From positions 186,001 to 250,000 of the forward strand of contig JAENYC010000001.1 in the NCBI GenBank assembly GCA_016841945.1: 64,000 nucleotides of DNA, read 5' to 3'. The notes beneath the pieces were generated by a model, which saw only the letters and a list, made by a program, of their open reading frames with translations, had not been told where the DNA came from and did no database searches. This DNA is from Haloplasma contractile. GTDB lineage: Bacteria; Bacillota_I; Bacilli_A; Haloplasmatales; Haloplasmataceae. This document shows, piece after piece, positions 47,140 to 58,875 of this stretch. Position 1 is the first letter of the stretch. Each line of letters opens with the position of its first letter. Made by a program: the position numbers and the translations under genes.

Positions 47140-47634
47140 TTAAGCAAAATGATTTAACGTTAATAATAGATTATATAACACATTATGTCGAAATACATTT
47201 GTAATAATTTCTGTTACCATATTAAAGTGGACTCTATTTTTCATCGCAAATAGTATTTGTTGATATTTTACTATCGTCGCTAGTTCTCTTTTTAGGGATT
47301 GTTTTAAACCTTCATTAAATGATTGTGGTTTTTGAAATGATTCATTTTCATCTGGTGGTAATACTTGACCTGTTAACTGATAATAAATCGTTCTAAACAT
47401 TTTAATGTGTTTTATCTTATCATCTCGTATATCTGATAGGATTTCTCTGGCTTCTTCGTTTGGTGTGATATTGACTAAATAATGATAAAATAATTCATCA
47501 CTTCTTTCACAACATAATATTTCTTTTATTAACCGCACGGCATTTTGATAGTTTTTTGGATAAGTATAGATATTTAAATCATTCACCATATCACTACTAT
47601 TGATTCGATAATCAAAATAAGGATTATAATTCAT
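47140..47634 (-). CDS. Ferritin-like domain protein
   Basis: Four-helix ferritin/rubrerythrin-like protein, 164 aa from ATG at 47634 (GGAGG 8 nt upstream). Helix A contains LIKEILCCERSDELFYHYLVN (about 32-52); helix B has EEAREILSDIRDDKIKHIKMFRTIYYQLTG (about 57-86), where family members carry an E/DxxKxH iron-binding motif; helices C and D span SFNEGLKQSLKRELATIVKYQ to the C-terminus. Several expected Glu ligands are replaced by Asp or missing at the end, so iron binding is uncertain. Such small proteins are common in Bacillota and often described as rubrerythrin-related. Confidence 0.7.
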   Translation of the reverse strand: MNYNPYFDYRINSSDMVNDLNIYTYPKNYQNAVRLIKEILCCERSDELFYHYLVNITPNEEAREILSDIRDDKIKHIKMFRTIYYQLTGQVLPPDENESFQKPQSFNEGLKQSLKRELATIVKYQQILFAMKNRVHFNMVTEIITNVFRHNVLYNLLLTLNHFA

Positions 47635-47693
47635 TAAAAAAACCTCCATAAAAAATATCAATCTATTATATGAAGGTCATTTTCATTAGGTTA

Positions 47694-49436: not shown

Positions 49437-49546
49437 TCAGTTAGTTATCCTTTTGTTTTTCTTTTGATTATAATTTTTCTTATTGATTGATTTCCTTTTA
49501 ACAGGCATTTTATCAAAGGTCACATGTTCTTTTTCTTTTTAGCCAT
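49437..49546 (-). pseudogene. Small basic protein, frameshifted in an A-run
   Basis: An ATG at 49546 overlaps the stop of the upstream gene (TAATG) and has GGGAG 6 nt before it, but after MAKKKKNM the frame stops. Adding one A in the A-rich stretch right after the start gives a continuous 36-residue reading, MAKKEKEHVTFDKMPVKRKS followed by an Asn/Lys-rich tail ending KRITN. This suggests a recent one-base deletion or a sequencing error in a short basic protein gene. Not recognised as a family. Confidence 0.4.
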
Positions 49547-50051
49547 TAGTGACTCCCACTACTGCTTCCACCACTACGTTGTGCTTCAACTAAATTTCTT
49601 ATTCCTTCTACCAAATTGATAGTTTCATATATATCAAAATCATCATTTAGAATTTTAACACAATAACTATGTGACCGTAATGAGATAAAAGATGTATAAC
49701 TTGATACTTCAATTAGGACTTGATTTTGATAAAACACTTTAAAATTAGGATCAAAAACATTCCCTTCTATTTGAAAGATTAGTCCTTTATTGTTTTGATA
49801 AATATATCTTTTTTTAAAGAATGAAAACAATTGTTTAATTCTTCCTATTTCATTTTCTTCTGTATCTAAAATTTACCAAGTTGGTCTAAATGAAAAGACT
49901 TTTTTATGTCCTTTTGAAATCACTTGATCACGTGAATCTAAAATTGTGAGTTTTCTTGAAAAACTATCAATTTTAGCAACAACTTGTTCATGTTGGTCCA
50001 TGACTTCACTAATTCCACTATTTTATCTGGCATAATAAGTATTCTTTCCAA
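49546..50051 (-). pseudogene. LURP-one/YxjI-like (Tubby C-type fold) protein, disrupted
   Basis: The intact part downstream of 49830 reads as beta strands followed by a helix (FKKRYIYQNNKGLIFQIEGN, then DFDIYETINLVEGIRNLVEA and a Ser/Gly tail), like the C-terminus of LURP-one-related/YxjI proteins. The same frame continues upstream through ILDTEENEIGRIKQ, one in-frame TAA after FSFRPTW, then VMDQHEQVVAKIDSFSRKLT. Farther upstream the coding frame shifts by one base to LERILIMPDKIVE, which starts at TTG 50051 with AGGAGG 7 nt upstream. So one nonsense and one frameshift mutation interrupt the gene. Function of this family in bacteria is poorly known. Confidence 0.6.
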
Positions 50052-50074
50052 AAAAGTTCCTCCTTTAAATGACT

Positions 50075-50104
50075 AAAAGAGACATACGTAGCGATGTCTC
50101 TTTT
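50075..50104 (-). promoter_or_regulatory. hairpin just ahead of the LURP-one-like gene
   Basis: Minus strand arms AAAAGAGACAT / ATGTCTCTTTT with loop CGCTACGT. It ends about 11 nt before the AGGAGG of the LURP-one-like gene. The loop and 3' arm are complementary to the end of the leader peptide coding sequence at 50137-50153, so two structures exclude each other. Confidence 0.55.
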
Positions 50105-50136
50105 AATCCTTCACCTTCTATTGAATCTATAAAAGG

Positions 50137-50178
50137 CTACGTATTCATCTCTCCCAAGAAGGTGTTAATAAAAAACAT
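50137..50178 (-). CDS. 13-codon leader peptide
   Basis: MFFINTFLGEMNT from ATG 50178 to TAG 50137. Upstream is a very strong AAAGGAGGTGGTG stretch (GGAGG 12 nt from the ATG, with a second G-rich part closer). It is the only plausible use of that ribosome binding site, because no longer frame follows. Its last codons lie in sequence that pairs with the downstream hairpin. Translation is inferred, not shown. Confidence 0.45.
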   Translation of the reverse strand: MFFINTFLGEMNT

Positions 50179-50261
50179 TTTATCACACCACCTCCTTTTC
50201 TTTAAGTTAATTTATTATAAAATATTTTAAAGAAAATTTCAACATTTTATCAAAAAAATAT

Positions 50262-51584
50262 TTATTTACCATTTTTTTCTTTTAAATTCTTTATATACTT
50301 GATTCGGTCTTTAAACTTCTTTTCAAGTCCCTGTTCAGTTGGTTCATAATACACACTATCTTTTAACTTATCAGGTAAACATGTCATATTAGTCACTTTA
50401 TTTTCATAATTGTGCGCATATTGATAATTTTTCCCATATCCTAAATCATCCATGAGTTTAGTCGGTGCATTTCTGATTTGAAGAGGTACACCTTCAGACA
50501 AGGTGTTTAGAGCATCTTCCCTTGCTTTATCGTAAGCTTTATACAAAGCATTTGATTTTGGTGCAACTGACAAATAGACAACAGCCTGGGTAAGATTCAC
50601 GTTACATTCTGGCATGCCATTGTAATGAGATGCTTGATAAGCAGCAATTGCGATTTCCATTGCCCGTGGGTCAGCCAGTCCAATATCCTCTGATGCAAAA
50701 CGAATTAAACGTCTGGCAATATAAAGAGGGTTTTCTCCTCCTTCAAGCATCCTCGCAAGCCAATATATCGCTGCATCAGGGTCACTATTTCTCATTGATT
50801 TGTGTAGTGCTGAAATTATATTATAATGTTCTTCACCATTTTTATCATACAATAAAGTTTTTCGCTGCATACACTCTAAAACAGTTGATTTAGATATGTT
50901 GATTACACCCTCATTTTCATGACTACTCGTAACACTCATCTCTAAAATATTTAAAGCAGTACGCGCATCTCCATTACTAAATTCTGCGATATTTGATAAT
51001 AAAGCATCCTCGATTTTTATCTCTTTATTTGAAAAAGCACGTGAATCATTTAAAACCTGTTTTAAAAGTTGTTTGATATCATCTTCTGTCAATGCATTTA
51101 ACACAAAAACTCGACAACGAGATAAAAGCGCAGAATTAATCTCAAACGATGGATTTTCAGTTGTTGCGCCGATTAGAATGATATTTCCTCTTTCTACATG
51201 GGGTAAAAAAGCATCCTGTTGTGCCTTATTAAACCGATGTATCTCATCCACAAATAAAACCGTCTTAATACCCATTTTACGATTCTCAGAAGCTTTATTC
51301 ATTACTTCTTTAATTTCTTTTATTCCACTCATAACCGCACTAAAATTAATAAATTTGGCCTTTGTCATCTTCGCGATAATCATCGCAAGTGTAGTTTTCC
51401 CAACACCAGGTGGACCCCAAAAGATCATTGAAGTCACTTTATCAGTTTCAATCAATTTTCTTAATACTTTTCCTTCTCCGATAATATGTTTTTGTCCCAT
51501 AAATTCATCTAAATTTCTCGGCCTTACCCTATCGGCAAGGGGAGTTTGTTCATAATTATAAAATAATGAATTACTTTGCATCAT
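50262..51584 (-). CDS. rarA: Replication-associated recombination protein A (AAA+ ATPase)
   Basis: AAA+ clamp-loader-like ATPase RarA/MgsA acting at stalled replication forks, 440 aa. The start is set at the ATG pair 51584/51581 with GGAAGTG upstream; the ATG at 51602 has no ribosome binding site. PLADRVRPRNLDEFMGQKHIIG at the N-terminus, Walker A FWGPPGVGKTT, Walker B VLFVDEIHRF, sensor IGATTENPSFEI, Arg finger SRCRVF, then the RarA-specific C-terminal part GGENPLYIARRLIRFASEDIGLADP. Neighbourhood with tcdA, 6S RNA, aspS and hisS resembles that in Bacillus. Confidence 0.96.
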   Translation of the reverse strand: MMQSNSLFYNYEQTPLADRVRPRNLDEFMGQKHIIGEGKVLRKLIETDKVTSMIFWGPPGVGKTTLAMIIAKMTKAKFINFSAVMSGIKEIKEVMNKASENRKMGIKTVLFVDEIHRFNKAQQDAFLPHVERGNIILIGATTENPSFEINSALLSRCRVFVLNALTEDDIKQLLKQVLNDSRAFSNKEIKIEDALLSNIAEFSNGDARTALNILEMSVTSSHENEGVINISKSTVLECMQRKTLLYDKNGEEHYNIISALHKSMRNSDPDAAIYWLARMLEGGENPLYIARRLIRFASEDIGLADPRAMEIAIAAYQASHYNGMPECNVNLTQAVVYLSVAPKSNALYKAYDKAREDALNTLSEGVPLQIRNAPTKLMDDLGYGKNYQYAHNYENKVTNMTCLPDKLKDSVYYEPTEQGLEKKFKDRIKYIKNLKEKNGK

Positions 51585-51734
51585 ATATTCACTTCCATTC
51601 ATTTCAAACGCATGTTCGTAACCTAAATTATACCATTTATAAAGTTATAATTCAATATATTTAAAAATTGTTATAAAAAGTCGTATTATGTCAAAACTAA
51701 TGGTAGAATAAAAACTTTTAAGTAGGTGCTAATA

Positions 51735-53333
51735 ATGCGATCATTTAAAGACATATTTGATTCAATCAAAAAGCAAGCACAAAATAATCAAAATGAAGAA
51801 AAGAAATTATTAATAAGTAAAGATTTAAAGAAAAATATAAATAATATCAAAGATTACCTTGGAAGTAGTACTGACCTAATCCTAAGAGAATTTATAATCG
51901 GTGAAAAATATAGATGTGCTTTATTTATCATTGATGGACTAACTAACGGAGTATATATATATGATTACTTACTAAAACCCTTAATGGTTGATGTAAGAAA
52001 CACCAAATTATCAGTAGAAATTAACTCACCACAGGATTTATTTAAAGTGTTAAAAGATCGCGTCATTTCATTAATAGATATAAAAGATGATGATGATTTT
52101 TATCAATTAGTTGATGCACTATTAACCGGAGATTCTTTACTATTTGTTGATGGCGTCGCTAAAGCTTTTATCATAGAAACAAAAGGTTGGCAAGACCGAG
52201 GTGTTACTGAGGCCAGTTCCCAAATGGTTGTAAGAGGACCTAAGGATAGTTTTAATGAGACCCTAAGAACCAATACGATGTTAATCAGAAGAAGAATAAA
52301 AGATCCTAATTTAAGAATAGAAAACAAAACCATCGGTACTCGTTCAAGAACAGACGTTGCGATCATGTATATCAAGGGGATTGCAAACGATAAGGTAGTT
52401 GAAGAAATACACGAACGACTAGATAGAATAAAGATAGACGCAATTTTAGAAAGTAGTTATATCGAACAATTAATACAAGATAACAGATTTTCTCCATTTC
52501 CAACAATTTCTAACACTGAAAGACCCGATTCAGCTGCTGCTTCTCTTTTAAGTGGTTTTGTCGTATTATTAATTGACGGAACACCTTATACTTTAATAGT
52601 CCCTGGTCTTTTTATTTCATTATTTCATACTGCTGAAGATTATTATCATCGTTTCTTTTTTTCAACAATGGTTCGTTTGGTGAGAAGTTTTGTCTTTTTT
52701 TTAGCCCTTTTGACACCATCTATCTATATTGCCATCACGACCTTTCATCAAGAAATGTTACCTACGCCTCTCCTAATTAGTATTTCGAATCAACGGGAAG
52801 GTATTCCATTTCCCGCTTTTATTGAGGCCTTATTAATGGAAATGACATTTGAAATCTTACGTGAGGCAGGTATAAGAATGCCAAGAGCGATTGGTTCTGC
52901 AATTACGGTAGTTGGTGGTCTTGTTTTAGGAGAAGCCGCTGTACAAGCGGGCATTGTGTCTTCTGTGATGGTCATTGTAGTATCTCTAACTGCAATATCA
53001 AGTTTAATCACACCTGCTTATGATTTAGGCATCAGCGTTCGTCTATTGCGATTTGTTTTCATGTTTCTTTCAGCGAGTTTTGGATTATATGGTATTACGA
53101 TTGGTTTATTATTTTTACTTCTTCATTTGTGTAGTTTACGGTCATTTGGCATTCCCTATCTCTATCCACTTGCCCCATTTAATTTTGAAGCATTTAAAGA
53201 TTCCATCATTCGACAACCTTTATGGAAGGATTGGAAACGTCCAAACTTAGTTAGTCATGGTAATGTCAGACAAAAACCACCAAAAATCGCTGCACCTAAA
53301 CCACCAAAATCTAGTAAAGAAAAGAATCGCTAG
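51735..53333 (+). CDS. Spore germination receptor subunit A (GerA family)
   Basis: Nutrient germinant receptor A subunit, 532 aa from ATG at 51735 (TAGGTG upstream). A cytoplasmic N-terminal domain (about 1-245) includes RGPKDSFNETLRTNTMLIRRRI and TRSRTDVAIMYIKGIAN; the membrane part begins at the signature NTERPDSAAASLLSGFVVLLIDGTPY (about 255-280) and contains about five helices, including the region EALLMEMTFEILREAGIRMPRAIGSAITVVGGLVLGEAAVQAG. The C-terminus is basic (PPKIAAPKPPKSSKEKNR). First gene of an A-C-B operon like gerK. The protein sits in the spore inner membrane. Confidence 0.95.
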   Translation: MRSFKDIFDSIKKQAQNNQNEEKKLLISKDLKKNINNIKDYLGSSTDLILREFIIGEKYRCALFIIDGLTNGVYIYDYLLKPLMVDVRNTKLSVEINSPQDLFKVLKDRVISLIDIKDDDDFYQLVDALLTGDSLLFVDGVAKAFIIETKGWQDRGVTEASSQMVVRGPKDSFNETLRTNTMLIRRRIKDPNLRIENKTIGTRSRTDVAIMYIKGIANDKVVEEIHERLDRIKIDAILESSYIEQLIQDNRFSPFPTISNTERPDSAAASLLSGFVVLLIDGTPYTLIVPGLFISLFHTAEDYYHRFFFSTMVRLVRSFVFFLALLTPSIYIAITTFHQEMLPTPLLISISNQREGIPFPAFIEALLMEMTFEILREAGIRMPRAIGSAITVVGGLVLGEAAVQAGIVSSVMVIVVSLTAISSLITPAYDLGISVRLLRFVFMFLSASFGLYGITIGLLFLLLHLCSLRSFGIPYLYPLAPFNFEAFKDSIIRQPLWKDWKRPNLVSHGNVRQKPPKIAAPKPPKSSKEKNR

Positions 53334-58681: not shown

Positions 58682-58875
58682 ACAATAAGTGCCGAACTAG
58701 TACGAAGATTTATAAAATTAATCCGAACATCTTATAATAAGGAAGTTGGGTATACTTTATTCCGTGTTGAAAGCCCACTTTAAGTGGGAATCCTGAAGAA
58801 TGAGTCGAAACTTCCACCTGCACATAACGCGGGTTAAACACCTTAAATCTACGGCTAGTTGGGCCTTATTCTATA
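58682..58875 (+). ncRNA. ssrS: 6S RNA (Firmicutes type)
   Basis: RNA polymerase-binding regulatory RNA of about 195 nt. The two ends pair in a long closing stem (AATAAG...AACTAG near 58684 against CTAGTTGGGCCTTATT near 58855). Internal features recall the Firmicutes 6S core: GCCCACTTTAAGTGGG hairpin, then CCTGAAGAATGAGTCGAAAC, and CACCTGC...GCGGGTT, the counterpart of the conserved 3' hairpin of E. coli 6S. Position next to aspS agrees with bsrA in B. subtilis. It is convergent with aspS and divergent from the AI-2E gene. Assigned from memory of family features, without an Rfam search. Confidence 0.82.

What the first reader, a model, noticed from the sequence alone, without database searches (positions are those of the whole stretch)
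50055..50200. Leader peptide with mutually exclusive RNA hairpins ahead of a LURP-one-like gene
Seen: a strong ribosome binding site precedes a 13-codon frame (MFFINTFLGEMNT, 50178-50137). Its final part, AGAGATGAATACGTAGC, can pair with GCTACGTATGTCTCT at 50092-50078 (14 pairs around a short bulge). That same stretch is needed for the hairpin AAAAGAGACAT / ATGTCTCTTTT at 50075-50104. A further CACCTTC / GAAGGTG pair (50164-50158 with 50118-50112) encloses the first element. Known: such alternative pairing around a short peptide is how erm/cat-type translational and amino acid operon attenuators work. Inference: ribosome position on the leader decides which structure forms and so whether the downstream site is used. 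I know of no such device for this family.
Basis: partly seen in the sequence, partly recalled or inferred. Interest (0 to 1): 0.65.

Follow-up and report, generated by a model that had tools for sequence, protein, structure and literature searches.

The report
Conserved two-way RNA switch after rarA

Summary
The RNA pairings are real and better than chance. On the minus strand a promoter (50242-50214) is followed by a hairpin that buries the short frame's ribosome site, a second hairpin, and an intrinsic-terminator-like hairpin (50104-50075). A segment overlapping the frame's end (50152-50136) pairs with the terminator's loop and 3' arm and competes with it. Upstream matches this good: 0 of 2000 shuffles.

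One close relative (85% over 153 bp, another genus) also lies after rarA, but precedes an M20 amidohydrolase, not LURP-one. A third (another genus, after rpsR, before an Imm64 gene) keeps only promoter, terminator and competing segment; it has no ribosome site or matching frame. About 390 other genomes of the class show no relative.

The window's LURP-one-like gene is a pseudogene (frameshift plus in-frame TAA). Between the two relatives with the frame, changes in it are 5 non-synonymous and 1 synonymous: no sign of selection on the peptide.

Best reading: a small promoter-switch-terminator element restricted to Haloplasmataceae, most likely a transcription attenuator; ribosome sensing is plausible only for the rarA-linked form. 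A free-standing small RNA is the main rival. erm/cat-type control and a present-day LURP-one target are not supported. Everything is sequence-based; nothing shows expression.

The parts
50214..50242 (-). promoter TTGAAA-17-TATAAT of the element (-35 50242-50237, -10 50219-50214; start of transcription expected near 50207)
   Evidence: 11 of 12 consensus match; TTG...17 nt...TATAAT at the corresponding place in both relatives, read from sequence (only TTG and TATAAT match there, so the scan did not list them)
50156..50197 (-). hairpin P1 AAGGAGGUG/CACCUUCUU, buries the Shine-Dalgarno of the short frame; start codon in its upper part
   Evidence: fold; all 9 pairs identical in G004; absent from G005
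50137..50178 (-). short frame MFFINTFLGEMNT* (13 codons)
   Evidence: counterpart MSFNYTFLGVLNT* in G004, none with a ribosome site in G005
50136..50152 (-). segment D, antiterminator-like strand; core AUACGUAGC is the end of the short frame
   Evidence: core ACGUAG identical in three genera
50113..50137 (-). hairpin P2 CCUUUUAU/AUAGAAGG, candidate pause hairpin
   Evidence: 8 of 9 pairs identical in G004; weak in G005
50075..50104 (-). hairpin P3, intrinsic-terminator-like; loop 50093-50086 contains GCUACGU; segment E = 50092-50078
   Evidence: two pairs with compensatory changes when G005 is included; the G004 and G005 counterparts are listed as terminators by the scan; the window copy has only a 4-U tail and was not listed
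49546..50051 (-). LURP-one-related (LOR) pseudogene: start TTG 50051 with Shine-Dalgarno 50064-50056, frameshift after MERILIMPDKIV, in-frame TAA 49875-49873
   Evidence: PF04525 E 9e-9; intact homolog in G006
50262..51602 (-). rarA, upstream neighbour
   Evidence: also upstream of the G004 copy

Best explanation
A small transcription attenuator of the family Haloplasmataceae. It has its own promoter and makes a leader RNA ending in an intrinsic-terminator-like hairpin (P3). Segment D pairs with the P3 loop and 3' arm as these emerge from RNA polymerase; if D is free, this antiterminator forms first and polymerase reads on into whatever gene follows; if D is covered or sequestered, P3 forms and transcription stops after about 130 nt. 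In the two rarA-linked copies D contains the last codons and stop of a 13-codon frame whose ribosome site sits in hairpin P1, so a ribosome finishing the frame would cover D and cause termination, while no translation or early stalling would allow readthrough. Shown by sequence: the competing helices, their conservation in three genera, the promoter and terminator positions. Inferred: that termination and readthrough happen, and that a ribosome is the switch in the rarA-linked form. In the window itself the gene it would serve is now a pseudogene.
For: D:E pairing beyond chance in each copy (0/2000 and 7/2000 dinucleotide shuffles in the window and G004; 11/2000 mononucleotide shuffles in G005). 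Nascent-chain folding: the antiterminator is the lowest-energy fold at lengths 120-135 in the window, 126-129 in G004 and 66-77 in G005, and the terminator takes over later; masking D as by a ribosome at the stop leaves the terminator. D fits its own terminator arm better than a foreign one in the window and G005 (-21.6 vs -16.3; -17.1 vs -14.6). P3 has two compensated pairs. Identity is about 0.83-0.93 inside the element and about 0.4-0.5 right after it, while rarA 3' end and M20 are 0.71 and 0.69. Only 24 nt (window) and 36-43 nt (G004) separate the terminator from the next start codon, so in these two the element is in that gene's leader unless a promoter is hidden there.
Against: The downstream gene is different in all three copies (LOR pseudogene, M20 amidohydrolase, Imm64) and about 130 nt away in G005. 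Only three copies are known, two of them similar. In G004 the terminator is favoured over the antiterminator by 2-8 kcal/mol once its arms are complete. The window's U tract is short. The frame's ribosome site is buried and far from its start codon, the frame shows no constraint on its amino acids, and it is absent in G005. No expression data.
Confidence: 0.5

Rival explanations
1. A free-standing small RNA gene (about 80 nt in G005, about 130 nt in the others): own promoter, own terminator, acting in trans; D pairs with the terminator loop as a pseudoknot or as an alternative fold that masks a seed in the loop.
For: Promoter and terminator bracket the conserved part; downstream genes differ in all three copies; in G005 the terminator has a full U7 tail and the next gene lies about 130 nt further; D core and loop GCUACGU are the most invariant letters and 7 bp of D can pair with the loop alone.
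Against: In the window and G004 there is hardly room for another promoter before the next gene, and the D:E match extends beyond the loop into the stem and follows stem changes, which a loop-only pairing does not need.
Confidence: 0.3
2. A leader RNA whose switch is set by a bound metabolite or protein rather than by a ribosome.
For: The switch exists in G005 without the frame; the stretch AUUCA between D and P3 is also conserved in all three.
Against: No Rfam family reaches threshold; no compact conserved aptamer-like domain; unrelated downstream genes.
Confidence: 0.1
3. An ordinary rarA terminator with accidental complementarity upstream; the frame is a chance reading.
For: P3 is the first terminator after rarA in the window and G004; AAAAGAGACA..TGTCTCTTTT-like terminators are common in the class.
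Against: Conservation of D, P1, P2 and promoter at 85%, shuffle tests, and a copy with the same D core and loop away from rarA in G005; the loop-and-arm pattern occurs elsewhere in the class only at chance level.
Confidence: 0.1

Closest known systems
Ribosome-sensing transcription attenuators with a short upstream frame, e.g. Bacillus subtilis vmlR leader (PMC9226507)
   Same: short frame in the first hairpin, a middle hairpin, an intrinsic terminator, and an antiterminator helix with the middle hairpin near its apex (paper read)
   Different: here the antiterminator strand lies after hairpin P1, not in it; it pairs with loop and 3' arm of the terminator; no resistance gene follows; the frame is lost in one relative
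ermC/cat-type translational attenuators (own knowledge)
   Same: alternative pairing around a short frame
   Different: the switched hairpin is a terminator; the downstream ribosome site is not in any switching helix
Amino-acid leader-peptide attenuators (trp, his; his leader peptides of bacilli in PMC2965389)
   Same: short frame plus overlapping terminator and antiterminator
   Different: no run of a regulatory codon in MFFINTFLGEMNT or MSFNYTFLGVLNT
Intergenic small RNAs with own promoter and intrinsic terminator (own knowledge)
   Same: gene layout, most clearly in G005
   Different: conserved competing strand against the terminator; next gene starts within a few tens of bases in two copies

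Membership tests
transcription attenuator (cis leader with terminator/antiterminator) | overlapping, mutually exclusive terminator and antiterminator helices | tested here: met
   conserved in three genera
transcription attenuator (cis leader with terminator/antiterminator) | intrinsic terminator with U tract before the regulated gene | tested here: met
   G004 and G005 found by the scan; window copy has a 4-U tail and was not listed
transcription attenuator (cis leader with terminator/antiterminator) | a regulated gene downstream whose expression depends on readthrough (usually the same gene in relatives) | tested here: inconclusive
   downstream genes differ: LOR pseudogene, M20 amidohydrolase, Imm64; dependence on readthrough could not be measured
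transcription attenuator (cis leader with terminator/antiterminator) | condition-dependent readthrough | not testable with these tools
   no transcript data
ribosome-sensing leader peptide (vmlR, trp type) | translated short frame overlapping the switch, conserved in relatives | tested here: inconclusive
   frame kept in G004, 5 non-synonymous to 1 synonymous change; absent in G005; ribosome site buried and 11-12 nt from ATG
amino-acid leader-peptide attenuator | several codons of the regulating amino acid | tested here: not met
   peptide sequences
ermC/cat-type translational attenuator | downstream ribosome site sequestered in the switching helix | tested here: not met
   switch ends at 50075; downstream Shine-Dalgarno 50064-50056 lies outside
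known Rfam cis-regulatory or small RNA family | score above gathering threshold | tested here: not met
   only 6S elsewhere in window; best here PyrR 19 bits against threshold 54
free-standing small RNA | own promoter and own terminator with no obligatory downstream gene | tested here: inconclusive
   fits G005 best; next gene within a few tens of bases in the other two

The most novel reading that the evidence does not exclude
A new, portable RNA switch of Haloplasmataceae in which one strand, D, imitates the terminator's 5' arm plus loop complement and competes for its loop and 3' arm, fitted in some copies with a short frame whose stop codon lies in D, so that translation in general (not one amino acid) sets transcription of whatever gene is placed behind it.
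Probability: 0.25. Interest if true: 0.55.

Novelty: new variant of a known kind. Interest (0 to 1): 0.4.

Why it matters
If right, it is an undescribed small regulatory RNA in a sparsely studied bacterial family, with the same switch placed before three unrelated genes and with or without a leader frame. That would make it a natural test of how attenuators gain or lose a ribosome sensor. It also corrects the target: not LURP-one.

Tried and rejected
Control of LURP-one: rejected as a present-day function, gene broken. Control of the M20 gene in the window: it has its own promoter-like site (48895-48867) behind a terminator (48926-48906), so the leader is not needed for it there. My first reading of the LOR gene as one frame with two TAA in place of glutamine codons was dropped after comparison with the intact G006 homolog, which shows a frameshift plus one TAA. 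Mobile repeat: rejected, one copy per genome. Same element after rarA in G001, G002, G003, G005, G007: not found. Plasmids and phages: none. The G029 hit and the weaker hits of model R3 are generic terminators without the GCTACGT loop. A scan of named genomes returned the G004 contig under its name, uncultured Haloplasmataceae, plus unrelated actinobacterial and Chloroflexi chance hits. Apparent compensatory changes in the AU-rich top of P1 depend on the alignment and were not found by the pair count, so they are not used. A literature search for a small RNA in Haloplasma found nothing relevant.

Full report
What is there. The window lies in a genome of a Haloplasma-type bacterium: the closest relative with the element is a contig named 'uncultured Haloplasmataceae bacterium', the same 6,050-base contig as G004:C57, which the tool places in the same family as the window. 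On the minus strand, between rarA (stop at 50262) and a LURP-one-related frame, a promoter TTGAAA-17-TATAAT (50242-50214, 11 of 12 consensus) is followed by three hairpins: P1 (50197-50156), which pairs the Shine-Dalgarno AAGGAGGUG with CACCUUCUU inside the short frame; P2 (about 50137-50113); and P3 (50104-50075), an intrinsic-terminator-like hairpin. The whole folds at -48.4 kcal/mol, z -5.3 against shuffles.

The competing pairing. Segment D (50152-50136), the last codons and stop of the frame MFFINTFLGEMNT*, pairs with the loop and 3' arm of P3 (E, 50092-50078). Duplex energy -19.2 kcal/mol, not reached in 2000 dinucleotide shuffles of the upstream RNA; in G004 -15.3, reached in 7 of 2000. 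Folding growing chains, the D:E form is the minimum at lengths 120-135 in the window and 126-129 in G004; P3 takes over afterwards. With D masked as by a ribosome at the stop codon, P3 is what remains.

Relatives. DNA search of 40 relatives gave one strong match, G004, 85% over 153 bp, from the -10 box to the end of P3. It too follows rarA, but the next gene, a few tens of bases after the terminator, is an M20 amidohydrolase. Conservation is highest inside the element and drops at its downstream edge. A model with P1, P2 and P3 found a third copy in G005 (E 1.2e-5): after rpsR and its own terminator, TTGTAT-17-TATAAT, a segment GGACAACGUAGUU, and a terminator AAAAGACA-GAGCUACGUC-UGUCUUUUUUU; P1, the ribosome site and the corresponding frame are missing; the next gene, about 130 nt on, is an Imm64 protein. 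There the D:E form is again the minimum at lengths 66-77 and the terminator afterwards. With G005 included P3 shows two pairs with compensatory changes, although 54 of 500 shuffles reach the same score, and in the window and G005 each D pairs best with its own E (in G004 its own and the window's are about equal). A screen of 395 genomes of the class found no further copy. With three sequences this is suggestive, not proof.

The frame. It is kept in G004 as MSFNYTFLGVLNT* with the same length and stop, but five of six substitutions change the amino acid (read from the alignment), and the segment from the start codon to P3 has no insertions or deletions inside or outside the frame, so keeping the frame is not informative. 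Its ribosome site is a good match to the anti-Shine-Dalgarno but is buried in P1 and lies 12 nt (11 in G004) from the ATG, compared with 3-9 nt in ten genes of the window. Translation of the frame is therefore possible, not established.

The neighbour. The LURP-one-like gene (PF04525) is broken: one frame reads MERILIMPDKIV..., the rest continues in another frame from ...MDQHEQVVAKI, and a TAA interrupts FRPTW|ILDTEEN; the homolog in G006 is intact through both places. Assembly error cannot be excluded, but two separate lesions make a pseudogene more likely. The flavodoxin-like gene further on and the M20 gene have promoter-like sequences of their own (M20; flavodoxin: extended -10 TGATATAAT, read from sequence only).

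How it most likely works. Best-supported is a transcription attenuator: D free gives antitermination, D covered gives termination. In the rarA-linked form a ribosome completing the short frame would cover D; that step is inferred. The layout resembles the vmlR leader of Bacillus subtilis (PMC9226507), but it is not a member: no resistance gene follows, and the contested strand lies elsewhere. The strongest rival is a free-standing small RNA, favoured by G005 and by the different downstream genes. erm/cat-type control is not supported because the downstream ribosome site is outside the switching helices.

Limits. No transcript data exist here, only three copies are known, the metagenome collection could not be scanned, and several genomes are drafts.

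Noticed in passing
window 58687-58869 (+): 6S RNA, 77.6 bits, the only Rfam family above threshold in the window.
   Followed up: no
window 51726-53333 (+): GerA-type spore germination protein (PF03323, E 2e-189), divergent from rarA, in a Haloplasma-type genome.
   Followed up: no
window 47140-47661 (-): 173-aa protein with weak similarity to encapsulin-cargo ferritin-like families, below curated cut-offs, next to the M20 gene; a similar protein lies at the same place in G001.
   Followed up: no
window 49546-50051 (-): LURP-one-related pseudogene with one frameshift and one nonsense codon; intact homolog in G006 (L055).
   Followed up: yes
L027 and L028 (G005, G006): In G005 the M20 gene directly follows a hexapeptide-repeat acyltransferase-like frame (dapD-like by eye), and one lies further upstream in G006, suggesting that the M20 protein may be an N-acetyl-diaminopimelate deacetylase (inference, not tested).
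   Followed up: no
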